This document shows, one piece after another, positions 37,679 to 45,606 of a stretch of DNA of 59,108 nt; positions within the stretch are counted from its first letter, which is position 1; the number at the start of each line of letters is the position of its first letter. The stretch is taken from positions 1 to 59,108 of the forward strand of contig JAFVTX010000023.1 in assembly GCA_017503015.1 (NCBI GenBank), given 5' to 3'. The notes under the pieces were generated by a model. That model had not been told where the DNA came from and ran no database searches. It worked only from the letters and a program-made list of their open reading frames with translations. A program made the translations under genes and the position numbers. The stretch is from Fibrobacter sp. (GTDB lineage Bacteria; Fibrobacterota; Fibrobacteria; Fibrobacterales; Fibrobacteraceae).

Positions 37679-37709
37679 TTACCCTTGGGATGAAAACTAA
37701 GGAGACGTC

Positions 37710-38327
37710 ATGAGCACTGTATTTATCATCCTTCTCGTAATCCTACTGATTATCGTTGGCATAATATTGCTCGTCAATATTGGCATCCGATTCGCCATCT
37801 TCACTGCCAGTACCGTCATCGACATTGTCAAGAGCCCCGCATCGCTGTTTTTTATCATGTGCTTCATAGTGGTAGCCATTTTGGCACTTCTCGCTAACCA
37901 AAAATCTGCGAGGGACTCGTCCTATGACCATGGCAAGGATATTCCTGTAGCTACAGAATACAAGCGGTCTCTCCTCGAAAATAAGCGCACTCATTTTAAC
38001 ACAAGCGAGACAAACACGCCAACCCGCGAAACGCAAGAAGAACCGATCTACGTCGATGAGATGCCAGAACATAAACCAATTATGGATTTTATAGAGGAAG
38101 AAGTTTCCAGCGCGGAGGTCGTCTATGACGCCCAAGGAAATAAATACAAAACTGTAAAAATTGGCGAACAAATTTGGATGGCGGAAAACCTGAATTACAG
38201 GACGCAGGATAGTTATTGCTATCAAGACGATGAAACGAATTGTTCCAAGTATGGTCGTCTATATACCTGGAATGCAGCTAAAATGGCATGCCCGAGCGGC
38301 TGGCACTTGCCTTGCGGTGCCGCCTGA
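37710..38327 (+). pseudogene. Two-helix membrane module fused to a FISUMP domain, truncated
   Basis: The protein opens with two membrane helices (TVFIILLVILLIIVGIILLV and ASLFFIMCFIVVAILALL), nearly identical at DNA level to the gene at 42695. A linker is followed by a FISUMP domain starting VVYDAQGNKYKTVKIGEQIW near residue 133. It runs normally to ACPSGWHLP and then is lost: at 38306 the sequence switches to the reverse strand of the XRE gene's 5' end, giving only CGAA and a stop. The last ~110 residues of the domain are missing. The junction shares CTTGCC with the XRE gene. The product may still be made as a truncated protein. Confidence 0.85.
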
Positions 38328-38409
38328 GTACCTTTGCGAGGGCTTCGGAGAAGCGGTCATCCTCAATTTTCTGCAAGTTTTGCAGGTCTATCTTTGGCAT
38401 GTGTGGCAT
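38306..38409 (-). pseudogene. Truncated XRE regulator, 5' end only
   Basis: Minus-strand ATG at 38409 starts a frame matching the XRE gene at 31663 for about 34 codons (HMPKIDLQNLQKIEDDRFSE and onward to LRRHRKA). The reading frame then continues into FISUMP antisense and stops near 38277. The DNA-binding helix-turn-helix is absent. Confidence 0.85.
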
Positions 38410-38558: not shown

Positions 38559-38625
38559 AAATCACATATATCTGTGATTTCCGGGCGAGAATAATATATA
38601 TTTCCTAAAAGTTACAGATGTCTGT
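38559..38625. promoter_or_regulatory. Operator/promoter region of the precursor gene
   Basis: AAATCACA-N6-TGTGATTT (38559-38580) is a perfect 8+8 palindrome; ACAGA-TG-TCTGT lies at 38614-38625; TATATTT near 38597 could be a -10 box. In copy 1 the first palindrome has one mismatch. Confidence 0.5.
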
Positions 38626-38694: not shown

Positions 38695-38838
38695 ATGAAG
38701 ACAATGAAAAAGATGGCTTACAAGAAGCCCCAGCTTATCGCCAAGAACAACCCCACCGGCAGCTTCGCTGCTGGATGTCCTGCTAACCACCGTTCGTTTA
38801 GCAGCCAAACTTGCTTGAACTGCGAACGCACCAAGTAA
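38695..38838 (+). CDS. Putative RiPP precursor peptide
   Basis: 47 residues behind a good ribosome site (AGAGG, 6 bases). The first ~20 residues are basic and free of Cys (MKTMKKMAYKKPQLIAKNNP), as in a leader. The rest contains TGSFAAGCP, then a Ser-rich stretch and a final CLNC, with three Cys at 28, 40 and 43. Size, Cys content and the position directly before radical SAM/SPASM genes, one with a PqqD-like leader-binding domain, fit a ribosomally made peptide modified at Cys or nearby residues. The phrase NNPxGSFAAGCP seems like a conserved recognition/core motif; I cannot name the subfamily. The coding strand uses normal Fibrobacter-like codons. Confidence 0.7.
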   Translation: MKTMKKMAYKKPQLIAKNNPTGSFAAGCPANHRSFSSQTCLNCERTK

Positions 38839-38857
38839 AATAATACGCAATTCTCCT

Positions 38858-38882
38858 GCGTGCGGGGGTATGCCCCGAACGC
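38858..38882 (+). terminator. Hairpin after the precursor gene
   Basis: GCGT.CGGGG pairs with CCCCG.ACGC around GTATG (one mismatch). There is no T-run, so it is more likely an mRNA-stabilising or partial-stop structure that favours the precursor over the downstream genes. Confidence 0.4.
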
Positions 38883-38955
38883 CTGGAGTTTGCTTTCACT
38901 AGGGGTAAAGGCTTTTGCACTCTTGCCTTATAGCCCCATAAAAACTGAGAAAAAA

Positions 38956-39114
38956 ATGGAAAACTATGAAAATTTCAAAAAATCGATTGATTATGTCATC
39001 GAAATGTTAAACACATTGAAAGAACAAATGAAGAAGGAAGATTCTCTAAGTCGGGAATTTATTGATACAATGGATAACTTCAGGGGGAAAATTGAGAAAT
39101 ATTTAAAAATATAA
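38956..39114 (+). CDS. Small helical protein in the RiPP locus
   Basis: 52 residues (MENYENFKKSIDYVIEMLNT to FRGKIEKYLKI) with heptad-like spacing, so probably a coiled coil. It has no Cys and no leader-like features, so it is not a second precursor. ATG 38956 follows an A-rich stretch with weak ribosome binding. It lies between the precursor and the first radical SAM gene. It could be a chaperone-like or recognition subunit, but nothing in the sequence proves this. Confidence 0.45.
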   Translation: MENYENFKKSIDYVIEMLNTLKEQMKKEDSLSREFIDTMDNFRGKIEKYLKI

Positions 39115-39138
39115 GTATTGCTTTGAATCCGTTTCTTT

Positions 39139-40423
39139 ATGACCCCAATTGAACATTTAAAAAGCCTTTCCCTTGAAATATCCAACCCGTGCAATGAACG
39201 TTGTGTTCATTGTTATCGAGTTTGTGATTCTACAAGGTAAGGGTTTTTAACCATTGAAGATGTCCGACTGGTATTTAAGCAAATTGAGAACATCCGTTCC
39301 GACAAATTACAAGTGACTATCACTGGCGGCGAAGCCCTGCTGAATAGAAATTGGAAAGAAATTCTAGCCTTTATTCAAAATGAAGGATGTTCGTTCAGTC
39401 TATTTTCTAACGGAACGCTTTTATCGGATGCTGATGCGGATTTTCTTGCATCTCTTGTCAGCAAAGGCCTTAAAGAAGTTCAATTGTCTATATATGCCTT
39501 GGATCCCGTTATTCATGATAACGTGACAAACTTGAAAGGGTCTTCAAAAAAAACTTTACAAGCTCTACAAAAGCTGCGTATGCGCAATGTTCCTGTTTTC
39601 GTTTCGTGCCCGGCGATGCAAGTTAATAAGAATAATTTGGCGGATTTGATGCGGTGGGCAGACAAGGAAAAAATCCCATCGTGTGTGGATTTGTTTATTT
39701 TCGGAGCTTCGGATTATTCGGAAAAAAATTTGAGTCAAAGGTTGAATTTTGATGACTTGGAACGTTTCTATGAAGAAACGATGCAAAACAACGGGGAGTT
39801 GGCATATGTATGGGGGAATAATCGCCAAAAAACGAAGCCATCGGAATGCCTTTTTTATGGGGAGGCGGCGAATGGACTTTGTATTTCTGGAGATGGTTCC
39901 ATCTATCCCATGATAGGGTGGTATGAAAAATTGGGGAACATCCATCAAGATTCGATAGAGAATATTTACGCCAATCATCCGGTATTGCAACAGTGCCGGA
40001 AAATCAATGTCTCAGATTTTTGCGAGTGCATTAAATGTGATGCTTATGGTTACTGCTCTTTATGTCCGCTGCCGCATCTTTCTGCTAACCATGGCAATCT
40101 TTTGAATTTAGACAAATCGTATTGTGATTATGTACACAAGGTGAAAGAACTTGCACAACGAAGGGATAAAGTTATGGAAGAACTTGCAAAAAATAAAAAG
40201 GATGTCATAAAGTCATTGTCAGATAATAAACGATTGAAAGCTCACCATGATATGTTAGTAAAGCTGTTTTTGAGGACAAATGATGAAAAATTAAAAAAAA
40301 CTATTAAATGATGCAATTGTTTTCATAGCAGATTCAGGGATGATTAATAATCCCGAAAAGATAACTCTTGCTCTTTCAACAGTTCCTCCATATACTGACC
40401 TGATAAATTATTGCAAGGAATGA
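39139..40423 (+). pseudogene. Radical SAM/SPASM peptide maturase, broken by a stop and a frameshift
   Basis: Starting at ATG 39139 the chain has the radical SAM motif CNERCVHC at residues 18-25. The 35th codon on (39238-39240) is TAA, after which the same frame continues as GFLTIEDVRLVF, then TITGGEALLNRNW and the rest of a TIM-barrel maturase with SPASM-like Cys (CECIKCDAYGYCSLCPLP). Near the end a run of 8 A at ~40294 gives a premature stop at 40309; removing one A restores LNDAIVFIADSGMINNPEK to a stop at 40421-40423, six bases before the next gene. It was a ~420-residue enzyme; as read here it is inactive unless the stop is read through. Confidence 0.8.
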
Positions 40424-40427
40424 TTTT

Positions 40428-41879
40428 ATGTTCTACCGTCAATCTCGTGACACATTTATCCGTTCCATTGGTGAATACAGCTATATCTATAGTCAGCTTA
40501 CCAAACACGACCGCACATACACTCAAGAAGGCAGGGCCTTCCTTGAAGTTCTTTCCCGCGATCCACAAAGTCTTGATGCCTTGGCTGCCAAAGCAAGTGA
40601 ATACTTCGAGGGCGTTGCCCCAGCAAACATCAAAGAAGACTTGAGGGAAGTTCTAGATTCCCTAGTTGCCGATCGTTATCTGGTTTCCGGCAATACTGCC
40701 GAAGAATGTGCCGCCAAGGATACATATTTTAGTTATGCGGAAAATCCGAAAACTTTGTTCACCTACAACGCCCAGCAAAATCCTGACGACGACAAACTCT
40801 ATTCTGACACCCAGGAGGTGCTGGGCGTACATTATCGGGAACATCCACAAATACATAGTTGCCAAATTGAAACGACTAATCGTTGCAATGAACGATGTAT
40901 CCATTGCTACATTCCCCATGAATTGAAGAATGTAGTGTTACCCTACGAAGTGATTGAAAGCGTCTTGCAACAATTACACGATTTAGGCGTGCTAGGATTG
41001 ACTCTCTCTGGTGGAGAATTTTTCACGCACCCCGATGCCGAAAAAATATTGCGCAAGGCTCGTGAACTCGACTTCAGTTTCTATGTGCTGTCAAATATCG
41101 CATTACTCACATCGCGCATGATAGATGTACTTAAAGAAGTCAATCCGAGTTACGTGCAGACTTCGCTTTATAGCGTTAATCCCGAAGAGCATGACCACAT
41201 CACCCAATTGAAGGGTTCTTGCGAAAAGACTAAGGCTGCGATAGAAGCTTTGATTGCAGCGAATATCCCCGTACAAATCAGTTGCCCTGTAATGAAGACT
41301 AATTATCACACTTATAAGGATGTCTTGAAATACGCTTACGAGCGTAATTGTAAAGCTCAGACCGACTATGTGATGATGGCCCGATACGATTTTACTACAG
41401 ATAATCTTGCCGAACGATTGACAATGGAGCAGACGGAAGAACTTCTCAAAGACATTATCCAGTTCGACAAGGATTATCTTGACTTTACCGATACCCCTGT
41501 GCCGGAGGCTTTCCGCGAGGAATGGGGCAAGCGCCCTTTTTGTGGCGTAGGCATGGACAACCTATGCATCGCAAGCGACGGAATTGTTTACCCGTGCAGC
41601 GGTTGGCAAGGTATGGCTTGTGGCAATGTTCGCGAGCAACCCATCAAGGACATTTGGGAAAAATCCCCACAACTCAATAAGTTGCGTAAACTTACCAAGT
41701 CGGCTATTCCGCAGTGCTATGACTGCGAAGACCGTCAATTCTGTGCACCTTGCCTTGTTCGCAACTTCAACGAAAGTGGCGGCGACTATTTGAAGGTGGC
41801 TCCGCATTTTTGCAAGGCTGCTCACTTAAACCGCAAACTTGTAGAGGAAGCCAAGGCGAAACGGACGATTTTAAAATGA
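40428..41879 (+). CDS. Radical SAM/SPASM peptide maturase with PqqD-like leader-binding domain
   Basis: 483 residues. Residues ~1-100 look like a PqqD-type RRE domain (RTYTQEGRAFLEVLSRDPQS and EVLDSLVADRYLVSG) that grips precursor leaders. The radical SAM cluster motif CNERCIHC sits at residues 153-160, followed by LGLTLSGGEFF (GGE motif). The SPASM part has CGVGMDNLCIASDGIVYPC, then CYDCEDRQFCAPC and a final HFC, for auxiliary iron-sulfur clusters. Enzymes of this build make carbon-sulfur or carbon-carbon links in peptides. It is intact and starts 4 bases after the previous frame's restored stop. Confidence 0.9.
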   Translation: MFYRQSRDTFIRSIGEYSYIYSQLTKHDRTYTQEGRAFLEVLSRDPQSLDALAAKASEYFEGVAPANIKEDLREVLDSLVADRYLVSGNTAEECAAKDTYFSYAENPKTLFTYNAQQNPDDDKLYSDTQEVLGVHYREHPQIHSCQIETTNRCNERCIHCYIPHELKNVVLPYEVIESVLQQLHDLGVLGLTLSGGEFFTHPDAEKILRKARELDFSFYVLSNIALLTSRMIDVLKEVNPSYVQTSLYSVNPEEHDHITQLKGSCEKTKAAIEALIAANIPVQISCPVMKTNYHTYKDVLKYAYERNCKAQTDYVMMARYDFTTDNLAERLTMEQTEELLKDIIQFDKDYLDFTDTPVPEAFREEWGKRPFCGVGMDNLCIASDGIVYPCSGWQGMACGNVREQPIKDIWEKSPQLNKLRKLTKSAIPQCYDCEDRQFCAPCLVRNFNESGGDYLKVAPHFCKAAHLNRKLVEEAKAKRTILK

Positions 41880-42676
41880 TGACGGACTATCATGTTCATA
41901 TTGGTCAATGGAACGATGTCTATTTTAAGGCAGAAGATATTTTCTATGCCTTGAAAAAAAATGGCATTGGCGAATGCTGGTTTTCTTCTACAACCAGTTG
42001 CTTGTATTCAAAAACAATTGTCGCAGGGAAAAGCGATGCCGAGGTCTTAAATCATGAGGAACTTTATCTAAAAATCCGCGAAGAAGTCGTGTCCGCCTTG
42101 GAATATGCGCAAACAATAGATTTCAAGGCTCATGCCCTTTATTGGGTTGTTCCCGATATTGTCAAAAGCGGCATTGGCATTGAGCGGGCAATGACAGAAT
42201 GCCCTTACGATGGTTTCAAGTTACACCCTCGCGCTCAAGAGTGGAAACTTGACGATCCCGTAACTGTAAATTTTACGGAAGAGTTCTTTTCGTATGCGGA
42301 AAAACAAAATTTGCGTATTTTGATTCATACAGGGGCCAGTGGCGATGATTCGCCGAAACGATTCGAGCATTTTATCAAAACGCATCCAAAATGCCTTGTT
42401 CAGCTTGCACATTTGAAAGACCTAGATGCTCAGGAATATATGCTAAAAAATTACCCTAATGTAGTGGTCGATTCCTCTTTTGCCGGCGAGAACGAAATTG
42501 GAGCACTTGTAGGTGACGGCATCGAACGCAAGCGAATCCTTTGGGGGACCGATATGCCAGTTACCTATTGGTGGTATAATGTCCTCGGAAAAGAAAAAAT
42601 TCCGAGTATAGGAAAAGAAGTGTTGACCGAGTTTTATAAGAGAAATCATTATCCGACCGCATCACAATCACTTTAA
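41876..42676 (+). CDS. Amidohydrolase-family metalloenzyme
   Basis: 266 residues. The start overlaps the maturase stop (ATGATGA); either ATG is possible. DYHVHIGQWND gives the HxH metal motif, followed by LRILIHTG, VQLAHLKD and ILWGTDMPVT with the late Asp. This is the amidohydrolase-2 TIM-barrel family (hydrolases and decarboxylases on small carboxylic or amide compounds). Its place directly behind the maturase suggests it modifies or processes the peptide or supplies a substrate, but the family is broad. It ends 18 bases before the M15-type gene. Confidence 0.82.
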   Translation: MMTDYHVHIGQWNDVYFKAEDIFYALKKNGIGECWFSSTTSCLYSKTIVAGKSDAEVLNHEELYLKIREEVVSALEYAQTIDFKAHALYWVVPDIVKSGIGIERAMTECPYDGFKLHPRAQEWKLDDPVTVNFTEEFFSYAEKQNLRILIHTGASGDDSPKRFEHFIKTHPKCLVQLAHLKDLDAQEYMLKNYPNVVVDSSFAGENEIGALVGDGIERKRILWGTDMPVTYWWYNVLGKEKIPSIGKEVLTEFYKRNHYPTASQSL

Positions 42677-42694
42677 TTTTACAGGGAAGATGCC

Positions 42695-43414
42695 ATGAGC
42701 ACTGTATTTATCATCCTTCTCGTAATCTTGCTGATTATCGTTGGCATAATATTGCTCGTCAATATTGGCATCCGATTCGCTATATTCACCGCCAGCGCCG
42801 TCATCGACATTGTCAAGAGCCCCGCATCGCTGTTTTTTATCATGTGCTTCATAGGGTTCGCCATTTTCGTACTTGTCGATATGAAAAAATCTCCGAGTGG
42901 TTCGTCCTACGATCACGGCAACGATATTCCTGTAGCTACAGAATACAAGCAGTCCCACCCCGAAGAAACCTATCAGAAACCCGACGAGAGAACATATAAG
43001 CAAACTGACGATACTGAGCCTTCCATAGACAACGTCAACTACGATGTCCCTCTCCAAACAGGGTCAAACCATGACTACATCATGGAGAACACTTTCCAAA
43101 AACCAGGTGTCGTCATGGAACTTACCCCTCAACTCGAAAGCGGCCTCGTCTATGCCATAAAGGTGTTCAAGAGCCAGTTCGGACCAGACTTCTCACCTAC
43201 CATCATCTCCGCCCGTGACTCCTACCATATACACGACCGGTGGTCACCCCATAGGTATGGACAAGCTGTCGATATCAGTCTCGCTGACCTCCCCCTGAAC
43301 CAGAGAAGACGTGTAGTCAGAATCCTCGAAGGCACCCTACCCAAAGACTACAAGGTAAGATGGGAAGACAAGTACCTCTCAAATGAACATATCCACCTCC
43401 AATTCAGACTCTAA
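42695..43414 (+). CDS. Membrane-anchored M15-like peptidase
   Basis: 239 residues. The first ~65 residues are the two-helix membrane module shared with the truncated gene at 37710, nearly identical in DNA (ATG plus ~150 bases). A polar linker follows. The C-terminal ~95 residues carry SPHRYGQAVD (H-x6-D) and NEHIHLQF, the zinc and catalytic pattern of peptidase M15 and D-Ala-D-Ala carboxypeptidases. It probably cuts peptidoglycan peptides in the periplasm. A role in processing the neighbouring RiPP is possible but unproven. Confidence 0.75.
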   Translation: MSTVFIILLVILLIIVGIILLVNIGIRFAIFTASAVIDIVKSPASLFFIMCFIGFAIFVLVDMKKSPSGSSYDHGNDIPVATEYKQSHPEETYQKPDERTYKQTDDTEPSIDNVNYDVPLQTGSNHDYIMENTFQKPGVVMELTPQLESGLVYAIKVFKSQFGPDFSPTIISARDSYHIHDRWSPHRYGQAVDISLADLPLNQRRRVVRILEGTLPKDYKVRWEDKYLSNEHIHLQFRL

Positions 43415-43418
43415 CATC

Positions 43419-44126
43419 ATGAAACACGCAATCATTCTCATAATCGGCATCCTGGCAACCTCCGCGTTCGCCGAGTTTGTGCCTACATACATGACAGAAG
43501 CCGACTCTGGAAAGGCCGACACAGTAAACATGAATGTGACCAAAGTGTACGGCTCAGGTATCGCATTCCACGAGCACTACATCGTTACCACTGGTGACGT
43601 CGCTCGTCACGCTAAGAAACTGGCTGCCATAGTTGTTATGGTCAACAACACCCCTGTTGTAGCCAGGGTGGAACGCTCCGCAGACACTCTTTTCAACAAA
43701 GATAAGAACGAGTACCTCAACATGGCTATTCTCCAAGTTGACAACGATGTTCCACTAAACGCATGTAAAATCGAAGAGAGACTAATCAAGGTCGGTGAAC
43801 TCGTAACCGTCACTGGCTTCCCTGAGGACAGTAAAAAGGTACAGGTGAAGTCCTTGCCAGCAAAAGTCGTTGCGGACTCGACATTCCCCGAACATGTAGC
43901 AAGCGCAATCAACGTGAAGTTGCCTAGCGGATTCGGCGGAGCAGCCCTGTCTAGTCACGGAAAGGTAATCGGAATGGTATTCGGGTACAGTACACGCAAG
44001 CCAAACACATCGTTCTTCTACGATGGAATTCTAATGTCGGAGTACATCTTACACAGAAACAAGCCCACGACGACAGACATATCAAAATGCGTGTATCAAG
44101 TCCGAAGCTATGTCCCGGTAGAATAA
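43419..44126 (+). CDS. Secreted trypsin-fold pseudoprotease, copy 1
   Basis: 235 residues from ATG 43419, chosen because it aligns with the start of the paralogue at 44890; signal peptide AIILIIGILATSAFA. The fold is chymotrypsin-like: GSGIAFHEHYIVTTGDV where active enzymes have TAxHV, MAILQVDND at the Asp position, and GFGGAALSSHGKVIGM where GxSGGP is expected. So both His and Ser are replaced and it should not cleave peptides. Its stop overlaps the start of the active protease (TAATG), implying a partnership, perhaps as inhibitor, chaperone or sensor. Confidence 0.7.
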   Translation: MKHAIILIIGILATSAFAEFVPTYMTEADSGKADTVNMNVTKVYGSGIAFHEHYIVTTGDVARHAKKLAAIVVMVNNTPVVARVERSADTLFNKDKNEYLNMAILQVDNDVPLNACKIEERLIKVGELVTVTGFPEDSKKVQVKSLPAKVVADSTFPEHVASAINVKLPSGFGGAALSSHGKVIGMVFGYSTRKPNTSFFYDGILMSEYILHRNKPTTTDISKCVYQVRSYVPVE

Positions 44127-44788
44127 TGATGATACGGCTAATCGGTATCATCCTTGCGTTTGCGGTCATGGCTTCTGCGGAAGGGTTTCACAACGGCACG
44201 GGGTTCTTTGTCAACTCAGAGTACATCGTGACTGCGTATCATGTCGTAGAGGATTACGACTACAATTGTTATTACGATATCCAGAACGATTCGTGCTATA
44301 AGGTACATATCGTTGATTACGATAAGGAAAGAGACATTGTTCTGTTGAAGCTGGACGAGGAACCTGTTGAAATGCCTAGGGTATGTCGTATCGCACACTC
44401 GGAATTGCCTGTCGGGGAAAAACTCACCTCGTATGGCTACGTTGAACCGTTTCTTGACCATGATTTGACCGTTATCCCTATGAACATCCGTGTTCAATAT
44501 CGTTACGACGGTGATTATAGTTATTATCGCATGACTGGAACTCTGCAGCTTGGCATGTCTGGCGGGCCAAATTTTACAACGGATGGTCGAATTGGTGGAG
44601 TGAGCAAGTCGATATCGACAATGGAGAGGAATACCAGCAACCTGGTTAAGTCTACTGAAGTAATTCGTTTCCTTCGTAAGAATGGTGTACAGGAATATCC
44701 GAACACCAAGAATGTCAAAAAATGTGTTATCAGCATCGTGAACAGTAAGAAAGTATTCAGGTCTGCTCATGATGAATGGGGGGTGTAA
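44126..44788 (+). CDS. Secreted trypsin-like serine protease, copy 1
   Basis: 220 residues; the tandem copy suggests Met at 44129 may be the true start. A signal peptide (LIGIILAFAVMASA) is followed by the trypsin/HtrA-type fold with a full triad: TAYHVVE (His), RDIVLLKLD (Asp) and GMSGGPNF (Ser). Two Cys pairs are likely. It is translationally coupled to the pseudoprotease before it, which lacks the triad. It probably acts in the periplasm or outside on unknown substrates. Confidence 0.8.
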   Translation: MMIRLIGIILAFAVMASAEGFHNGTGFFVNSEYIVTAYHVVEDYDYNCYYDIQNDSCYKVHIVDYDKERDIVLLKLDEEPVEMPRVCRIAHSELPVGEKLTSYGYVEPFLDHDLTVIPMNIRVQYRYDGDYSYYRMTGTLQLGMSGGPNFTTDGRIGGVSKSISTMERNTSNLVKSTEVIRFLRKNGVQEYPNTKNVKKCVISIVNSKKVFRSAHDEWGV

Positions 44789-44889
44789 AAGCCTTCTTCT
44801 GTGTTTGCGAAATTTTACAACGATCTAACTTTACATTGGCGGGACTGCCATCGATAATTATATAGAGAATACAATCAACGGAGGTAATT

Positions 44890-45606
44890 ATGACGACTCT
44901 GAAACACGCACTCATCCTCATTATCGGCATCTTGGCAACTTCCGTGTTCGCCGAGATTGTACCCACCTACATGACAGAAGCCGACTCGGGAAAGGCTGAT
45001 ACTGTACATATGAAGACCACCCAGATATCTGGGACAGGCATCGCATTCAACGAGCACTACATCGTCACTACAGGAGACGTTGCACGCAATGCTGAGAAGC
45101 TTGCCGCAATTGTCGTGATGATAAATAACACACCCGTTGTAGCAAGGGTGGAACACTCTGTTGATACTGTTTTTGATAAGAGCGTAAACGAGTACCTAAA
45201 CGCTGCAATCATTCAGGTTGACAATAGTGTATCACTAACCGCATGCAAAATCGAAGATAGGGCTGTCAAAGTGGGTGAACCAGTCACGGTTACAGGATTC
45301 CTTGAAACCAACCCCAAAGTTCAAGTAAAGGCTTTTCCTGCAAAAGTCGTTGCCGACTCGACATTCCCTCATTACTTCGCACATGCACTGAATGTACGGT
45401 TGCCAGGTGGGTTCAGTGGTGCCGCAATTTCCCGTCATGGAAAAGTAATTGGAATGACATTCGGAAACAGCACACGCAAAGAAAATACATCATTCTTCTA
45501 CGATGGCATGTTAATATCGCAGTATATCATGCACAAGAACAAGCCAACCACGACAGACGTATCAAAATGTACGTATCAAGTACGAAGCTATGTCCCCGTA
45601 GAATAA
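44890..45606 (+). CDS. Secreted trypsin-fold pseudoprotease, copy 2
   Basis: 238 residues, signal peptide ALILIIGILATSVFA, with a strong GGAGG site. It is the tandem duplicate of the gene at 43419, ~75 percent alike by eye. The His position is again Asp (VTTGDV), but here the Ser region reads GFSGAAISRHGKVIGM, so the nucleophile may remain while the base is gone. Thus it too is probably inactive. It is followed, 2 bases after its stop, by the copy of the active protease. Confidence 0.7.
   Translation: MTTLKHALILIIGILATSVFAEIVPTYMTEADSGKADTVHMKTTQISGTGIAFNEHYIVTTGDVARNAEKLAAIVVMINNTPVVARVEHSVDTVFDKSVNEYLNAAIIQVDNSVSLTACKIEDRAVKVGEPVTVTGFLETNPKVQVKAFPAKVVADSTFPHYFAHALNVRLPGGFSGAAISRHGKVIGMTFGNSTRKENTSFFYDGMLISQYIMHKNKPTTTDVSKCTYQVRSYVPVE

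What the first reader, a model, noticed from the sequence alone, without database searches (positions are those of the whole stretch)
38695..42676. Compact RiPP-like locus: Cys peptide, helical protein, two radical SAM genes, amidohydrolase
A 47-residue peptide with a basic Cys-free start and three Cys at the end is followed by a radical SAM gene (broken), an intact radical SAM/SPASM gene with a PqqD-like leader-binding N-terminus, and an amidohydrolase coupled by ATGA. Radical SAM/SPASM plus RRE next to a short Cys peptide is the known layout of sactipeptide- and ranthipeptide-type RiPPs. I cannot place the precursor (GSFAAGCP, final CLNC) in a named class, and the amidohydrolase partner is unusual. 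Product and activity are inference.
Basis: partly seen in the sequence, partly recalled or inferred. Interest (0 to 1): 0.8.

Follow-up and report, generated by a model that had tools for sequence, protein, structure and literature searches.

The report
Fibrobacter modular radical-SAM peptide locus
This is a small bacterial gene set that makes a chemically modified peptide: the peptide's front half and its radical-SAM enzyme barely change between species, while its business end is swapped as a block together with the genes beside it, and relatives of the set ride on conjugative plasmids of E. coli, Salmonella and a fish bacterium.

Summary
In detail: a 47-aa Cys peptide, a small variable ORF, a radical SAM gene with one in-frame TAA, an intact radical SAM/SPASM gene with a PqqD-like N-terminus, and an ATGA-coupled amidohydrolase. 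Comparison with relatives supports and extends the RiPP reading. Twenty loci in 18 Fibrobacteraceae genomes carry the precursor. Its leader YxKPx[LVM]xAKNxPxGS[FY]xxGCP is under purifying selection (pN/pS 0.11) and holds a YxxP motif, known from other RRE-bound leaders; the core is hypervariable but ends C-x-x-C-[ED]. DNA homology between loci stops right after GCP and resumes at the maturase start, so core plus adjoining genes swap as a cassette. Precursor, RRE-SPASM maturase and amidohydrolase are the conserved trio; the second radical SAM occurs only with C[LM]NC cores (4/4 versus 0/14, post hoc). Full-length maturase homologues (35%) sit on E. coli, Salmonella and Photobacterium plasmids behind an identical 38-aa YxKP peptide (17 of 17 nucleotide differences synonymous). 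The window's copy looks partly decayed (nonsense codon in the second radical SAM gene, truncated HTH regulator). I judge this an undescribed radical-SAM RiPP family with an unusual amidohydrolase partner. Cross-link chemistry and activity are inferred, not shown.

The parts
38278..38409 (-). Truncated remnant of a divergent HTH_3/XRE-type regulator (43 aa left)
   Evidence: 82% identical to the N-terminus of the complete gene at the same place in L007; complete relatives in L042 and L084; HTH_3 5e-6 in L084's copy
38614..38625 (.). Operator-like palindrome ACAGATGTCTGT, 81 bp before the precursor start
   Evidence: Same palindrome at -79 to -83 in L007, L008 and L042 and several times in L084; other loci have TTTGCANNNGCAAA at -82 to -85
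38695..38838 (+). Precursor peptide, 47 aa: leader to Pro29 (YKKPQL...GSFAAGCP), variable core 30-47 ending CLNCERTK
   Evidence: 20 Fibrobacteraceae loci; leader pN/pS 0.11; homology breaks after codon 29
38853..38888 (+). Hairpin followed by T-rich tract after the precursor stop (terminator/attenuator)
   Evidence: Hairpin after the precursor in 17 of 17 loci tested, z -2.9 to -7.0; window z -4.0
38956..39114 (+). Small helical ORF (52 aa), part of the variable cargo; function unknown, may not be expressed
   Evidence: Lies in the region without homology to other loci; no family
39139..40311 (+). RSAM2: radical SAM gene without RRE, one in-frame TAA at 39238-39240; optional, core-linked
   Evidence: 51-60% homologues in L004, L044 and L042; only with C[LM]NC cores
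40428..41879 (+). RSAM1: RRE (PqqD-like) + radical SAM + SPASM peptide maturase, 483 aa
   Evidence: orthologues 63-91% in Fibrobacteraceae, 35% on plasmids of Gammaproteobacteria
41876..42676 (+). Amidohydrolase (PF04909), translationally coupled (ATGA); HxH, K/H, H, H, D metal-site residues conserved
   Evidence: present in 18 Fibrobacteraceae loci

Best explanation
A ribosomally made, post-translationally modified peptide (RiPP) locus of a family not described in the literature I could search. (1) The leader's YxxPx[LVM] motif docks on the PqqD-like RRE fused to RSAM1 (inferred from motif and domain). (2) RSAM1, a radical SAM/SPASM enzyme, acts on the core; the invariant Cys28 and the invariant C-x-x-C-[ED] tail are the likeliest sites, most probably as thioether cross-links (chemistry inferred, perhaps 55%). 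(3) The ATGA-coupled amidohydrolase acts next, most probably cutting or trimming the modified peptide as PurAH does in bottromycin; deamidation or decarboxylation are alternatives (inferred). (4) RSAM2, where present, adds a second modification to C[LM]NC cores (correlation only). (5) The core is exchanged between strains as one block with the adjoining small genes while leader, maturase and site stay; the product is therefore polymorphic and probably tied functionally to its neighbours, as in a toxin-immunity or signal-receptor pair (swap shown, function inferred). The window's copy has lost an intact RSAM2 and its HTH regulator but keeps the trio.
For: Conserved precursor with the maturase in 20 loci; protein-level selection on the leader; RRE support; seven invariant SPASM cysteines and CxxxCxxC; nearest solved relatives PqqE and SkfB; hairpin after the precursor in 17 of 17 loci; cassette swap with breakpoint at codon 28-30; plasmid homologues with an identical YxKP peptide, 17 of 17 differences synonymous; a Thiodictyon cluster with RRE-radical SAM, radical SAM, amidohydrolase, YcaO and TfuA; YxxP-type motifs are known RRE recognition sequences (PMC12710340).
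Against: No transporter or leader peptidase in the locus; no product or modification has been shown; the RRE score is below Pfam's cut-off in Fibrobacter; the RSAM1 structure model was unusable; the amidohydrolase is missing from the plasmid relatives and its substrate is unknown; cargo genes are absent in genus g5, so an obligatory immunity partner is not supported there.
Confidence: 0.82

Rival explanations
1. A peptide-derived cofactor or small-molecule pathway like PQQ or mycofactocin: RSAM1 modifies fixed residues, the amidohydrolase excises them, and the rest is scaffold.
For: RSAM1's nearest solved relative is PqqE; no exporter; a hydrolase is always close by in Fibrobacteraceae; C..C[ED] is invariant.
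Against: The core is hypervariable and swapped as a cassette, which a cofactor scaffold does not need; MftC and PqqE models score far below cut-off.
Confidence: 0.08
2. The RiPP is one element of an anti-phage or inter-strain conflict module whose variable cargo is the effector or immunity gene.
For: Core and cargo swap together; L083's cargo is an FRG-domain protein matching phage-defence candidate PDC-S15 at 6.4e-45; relatives lie on conjugative plasmids.
Against: Only one of the cargo proteins tested matches a defence family; genus g5 has no cargo; RSAM1 matches the viperin models only through the shared radical SAM core.
Confidence: 0.2
3. The short ORF is only a regulatory leader peptide of the maturase operon: an attenuator sensing translation, followed by its hairpin.
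For: A short ORF is followed at once by a terminator-like hairpin in all loci tested.
Against: Leader residues are held by selection while codons change freely, including 17 of 17 synonymous changes between plasmids; the YxxP motif and CxxC have no attenuator role; there is no codon run shared between loci.
Confidence: 0.03
4. In this genome the locus is a dying remnant and makes nothing, whatever it does elsewhere.
For: In-frame TAA in RSAM2; HTH regulator truncated next to a partial duplication of the flanking gene.
Against: Precursor, RSAM1 and amidohydrolase are intact with all expected catalytic residues; 14 loci lack RSAM2 altogether, so it is dispensable to the family; the TAA could be a sequence error, as reads were not available.
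Confidence: 0.3

Closest known systems
Sactipeptide maturation systems (AlbA, SkfB, StsB)
   Same: Radical SAM/SPASM maturase with an RRE beside a short Cys peptide; SkfB is among the nearest solved structures.
   Different: AlbA, SkfB and StsB models score far below cut-off; leader motif YxxPx[LVM] with GCP boundary; no transporter; amidohydrolase partner; thioether not shown.
Ranthipeptide (SCIFF, TIGR03973) systems
   Same: Cys peptide plus radical SAM/SPASM maturase; Glu or Asp next to Cys fits the Cys-Asp/Glu links of PapB in principle.
   Different: No NCBIfam match of the precursor; only three Cys; found in Fibrobacterota, not Clostridia.
Mycofactocin and PQQ biosynthesis
   Same: PqqD-type domain, radical SAM/SPASM enzyme, short peptide, hydrolase in the cluster.
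   Different: Core hypervariable; equivalog models fail; hydrolase is PF04909, not creatininase-like MftE (latter from own knowledge).
Bottromycin amidohydrolase PurAH/BotAH
   Same: The one RiPP pathway in the papers read where an amidohydrolase cuts the modified peptide (PMC10885120).
   Different: YcaO-based pathway without RRE-SPASM maturase of this type; no direct sequence comparison with PurAH was made.
Unannotated plasmid locus of E. coli, Salmonella and Photobacterium damselae (L085-L088)
   Same: 35-36% identity over the whole maturase including the RRE, with a YxKP peptide and hairpin directly upstream.
   Different: Peptide invariant, no GCP or CxxC tail, no amidohydrolase in the flanks, recombinase gene adjacent.
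Candidatus Thiodictyon plasmid cluster (L090)
   Same: RRE-radical SAM, second radical SAM and amidohydrolase in a row; amidohydrolase 27% identical, E 5e-11.
   Different: Carries YcaO and TfuA in addition; precursor not identified; second radical SAM not orthologous by evidence here.

Membership tests
Radical-SAM RiPP (general kind) | Short precursor with conserved leader and variable core beside the maturase | tested here: met
Radical-SAM RiPP (general kind) | Maturase with radical SAM CxxxCxxC and SPASM cysteines | tested here: met
Radical-SAM RiPP (general kind) | RRE domain that can bind the leader | tested here: inconclusive
   PqqD in 9 of 10 members, best 1.9e-5, mostly under the Pfam cut-off; hhalign E 2e-4, probability 44%; binding not testable here
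Radical-SAM RiPP (general kind) | Modified peptide product | not testable with these tools
   needs mass spectrometry
Sactipeptide | Maturase matches a curated sactisynthase model (AlbA, SkfB, StsB) | tested here: not met
   75.6, 64.4 and 59 bits against cut-offs of 850, 300 and 625
Sactipeptide | Cys S to C-alpha thioether | not testable with these tools
   needs MS/NMR
Ranthipeptide (SCIFF) | Precursor matches the SCIFF model TIGR03973 or another NCBIfam precursor model | tested here: not met
   no NCBIfam family for the 47-aa peptide at E up to 1
Mycofactocin / PQQ | Maturase passes MftC or PqqE cut-off | tested here: not met
   57.2 of 265 and 91.7 of 381 bits
FibroRumin system (TIGR04136) | Maturase in this genome matches TIGR04136 | tested here: not met
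   no match in the window's genome at E <= 0.001
Amidohydrolase superfamily PF04909 | Pfam cut-off passed and metal-site residues HxH, K/H, H, H, D kept | tested here: met
   30.8 against 26.4 bits; D4 H6 H8 K115 H117 H151 H179 D226 (alignment numbering as printed) invariant in nine sequences of two subfamilies; ACMSD/dihydroorotase-like fold of a pLDDT 75 model
Anti-phage defence system | Locus proteins match PADLOC models specifically | tested here: not met
   only generic viperin matches for RSAM1/RSAM2; one cargo protein in another genome matches PDC-S15

The most novel reading that the evidence does not exclude
A RiPP family spanning Fibrobacterota and gammaproteobacterial conjugative plasmids in which the core peptide and its neighbouring partner genes are exchanged as one cassette between a fixed leader and a fixed maturase, with an amidohydrolase doing chemistry not yet seen on radical-SAM peptides, and in which the peptide-partner pair works as a polymorphic conflict (toxin-immunity or phage-defence) module.
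Probability: 0.3. Interest if true: 0.8.

Novelty: new variant of a known kind. Interest (0 to 1): 0.63.

Why it matters
It gives Fibrobacter, a main rumen cellulose degrader for which the searched papers named no such peptide, a conserved radical-SAM peptide pathway. It is a natural experiment: leader and maturase are held constant while nature swaps the core, so the maturase must tolerate at least 15 different cores, which is of direct use for peptide engineering. It pairs a SPASM maturase with an amidohydrolase, a combination whose chemistry is unknown. Homologues on transferable E. coli plasmids make the chemistry testable in a standard laboratory host.

Tried and rejected
The AlphaFold model of RSAM1 was too poor to use (pLDDT 48.5), so no fold search was run on it. 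FibroRumin membership was tested and rejected. Viral contigs hold no relative of RSAM1, and phage records hold only partial matches under 30%. The E. coli complete-genome collection gave no match to the plasmid locus, although PLSDB holds five E. coli plasmids with it; I have no explanation. CagA matches to the RRE profile and the ZorA match to the helical ORF were set aside as probable coiled-coil noise; the viperin matches reflect the shared radical SAM core. Text searches for the leader sequence, for 'FibroRumin' and for Fibrobacter + radical SAM + RiPP found no description; the Hungate1000 bacteriocin survey does not mention Fibrobacter. The idea that the second radical SAM is essential was rejected because 14 contiguous loci lack it. 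No precursor was found for the Thiodictyon cluster.
Full report
1. What is there. The window holds, in order on the + strand, a 47-aa ORF (38695-38838), a 52-aa helical ORF (38956-39114), a radical SAM frame with a single in-frame TAA (39139-40311, here RSAM2), a 483-aa radical SAM/SPASM protein (40428-41879, RSAM1) and a 266-aa amidohydrolase that starts inside the maturase stop codon as ATGA (41876-42676). Pfam gives Radical_SAM and SPASM for RSAM1, Amidohydro_2 for the last gene, and a weak PqqD match. No curated NCBIfam model reaches its cut-off for either radical SAM protein in the listed matches, and the 47-aa peptide matches nothing.

2. Is the peptide real? It is found with the maturase in 20 loci of 18 Fibrobacteraceae genomes: 12 of 80 Fibrobacter genomes, three genomes of two sister genera, and three genomes of a further genus (g5), one of them with three copies (in G088 precursor and maturase lie on different contigs, and in L082 the maturase is mostly masked). 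A DNA pattern for the leader has no hit outside this family in 168 genomes of the phylum. Over 19 loci the 21 leader codons from Tyr9 to Pro29 have pS 0.68 and pN 0.074, ratio 0.11. The peptide is selected as protein.

3. Leader and core. The leader is YxKPx[LVM]xAKNxPxGS[FY]xxGCP; the rest varies in sequence and length but ends in Cys-x-x-Cys followed by Glu or Asp (in L004 the core is frame-broken and its tail reads on in another frame). In 53 of the 57 pairwise DNA comparisons, homology that covers the leader ends between codons 25 and 32, mostly 28.3-29.7, just after GCP; two of the four exceptions are the pairs L004/L044 and L005/L045, which share core and cargo. L002 and L005 lie at the same site (95% identical for 4.7 kb up to codon 29), then differ completely until the maturase start; L006 and L045 likewise share another site. 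Yet L005 and L045 are 89% identical without a break across core, small genes and maturase. So core plus cargo moves as a cassette between a fixed leader and a fixed maturase. The window and L007 show the same: 95% from -389 to codon 29, no detectable homology in core and cargo, 78% in RSAM1, then 95% downstream.

4. The cargo. The genes in the swapped position are mostly unrelated between loci: small helical ORFs, possible membrane proteins, 56-59-aa zinc-ribbon-like proteins, and in L083 an FRG-domain protein that matches the phage-defence candidate PDC-S15. In genus g5 there is no cargo; precursor, maturase and amidohydrolase are adjacent. Cargo is therefore linked to the core but not obligatory.

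5. RSAM2. It occurs in four loci (window, L004, L042, L044), upstream or downstream of RSAM1, and these four are the only ones with a C[LM]NC core; 14 contiguous loci without it have other CxxC tails (Fisher p 0.0003). This was noticed after the fact and L004/L044 are related, so it is suggestive only. L082 (CLDC) is undecided because its maturase region is masked. RSAM2 has no RRE and lacks the first SPASM cysteines. In the window it has one stop codon where homologues have K, R or Q.

6. RSAM1. The N-terminal 90 residues match PqqD in 9 of 10 members (best 1.9e-5), in the plasmid and g5 homologues just under the cut-off and in the Thiodictyon homologue above it. A profile comparison with three PqqD-type domains aligns residues 33-86 (E 2e-4, probability 44%). 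The structure prediction was too weak to add anything. The radical SAM and SPASM cysteines are invariant. RREs that read W/Y/LxxP motifs include PqqD, lasso and StsC types (PMC12710340), and YxxP is essential for RRE binding in lasso and LPP leaders (PMC13381572); this fits the YxxP in the leader here.

7. Amidohydrolase. Two subfamilies, 25-29% identical, occupy the place after RSAM1 (before the precursor in L041); the metal-site residues are invariant. It is present in 18 loci and absent in L115, whose RSAM1 also carries a stop. A predicted model (pLDDT 75) matches ACMSD-type decarboxylases and dihydroorotase. The precedent for an amidohydrolase in a RiPP pathway is PurAH, which removes the bottromycin follower (PMC10885120). 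Trimming is the most likely role here but is an inference.

8. Regulation. A hairpin follows the precursor stop in 17 of 17 loci tested, z -2.9 to -7.0, with different sequences, consistent with a terminator that leaves more precursor than enzyme mRNA. Some 80 bp before the precursor lies ACAGATGTCTGT or, in other loci, TTTGCANNNGCAAA; a divergent HTH gene is complete in L007, L042 and L084 and truncated in the window.

9. Range. tblastn against plasmids found full-length maturase homologues (35-36%) on conjugative plasmids of E. coli (five records), Salmonella Milwaukee and Photobacterium damselae. About 190 bp before each lies the same 38-aa peptide MSYSKPTVLAKSSTYMAQCRPNSKPSGRPCNPPGPSGR, not listed as a gene in the tables held. 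Between Photobacterium and E. coli its DNA differs at 17 positions, all synonymous, while the maturase is 77% identical. A recombinase gene precedes it. A Thiodictyon plasmid carries RRE-radical SAM, radical SAM, amidohydrolase, YcaO and TfuA in a row. The search could not cover all phyla, so the true range is unknown.

10. Verdict. Shown: a conserved precursor-maturase-amidohydrolase trio, protein-level selection on the leader, cassette exchange of the core, and plasmid relatives. Inferred: leader docking, Cys cross-links, the hydrolase's reaction, a conflict or signalling role. It works like a radical-SAM RiPP and meets the testable features of that kind; it is not a member of any named class tested. 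The window's own copy is probably impaired in RSAM2 and in regulation but may still make a product.

Noticed in passing
37703-37979 and 42688-42964: The gene before the locus is a partial, 89% identical copy of the gene after it (MSTVFIILLVILL...), joined to a fragment with a FISUMP-like WMAENLNY motif (named from memory) and running into the truncated HTH gene; looks like a rearrangement junction.
   Followed up: partly
43420-45486: Tandem paralogous secreted-protease-like genes (70-78% identical repeats) with an M15-peptidase-like gene before them; they lie after the locus in L007 and L008 too.
   Followed up: no
L041, about 3.8 kb before RSAM1: A different radical SAM gene (MNLVLCLTEQCNLRCSYCYY...) followed by a 113-aa ORF; possibly a second peptide-modifying system beside this one in G020.
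   Followed up: no
L090:4629-10706: Thiodictyon plasmid cluster with RRE-radical SAM, radical SAM, amidohydrolase, YcaO and TfuA; an IS66 element lies directly upstream and no precursor was recognised.
   Followed up: partly
L088:5085-5925, L086:7172-7923: In the plasmid relatives a recombinase-family gene, different in E. coli and Photobacterium, directly precedes the peptide gene; a diverged copy of part of it lies after the maturase in E. coli and Salmonella.
   Followed up: partly
L089:4415-8491: Macrococcoides plasmid with discrete PqqD protein, two radical SAM genes, a 40-aa ORF and an ABC transporter: a separate RiPP-like cluster.
   Followed up: no
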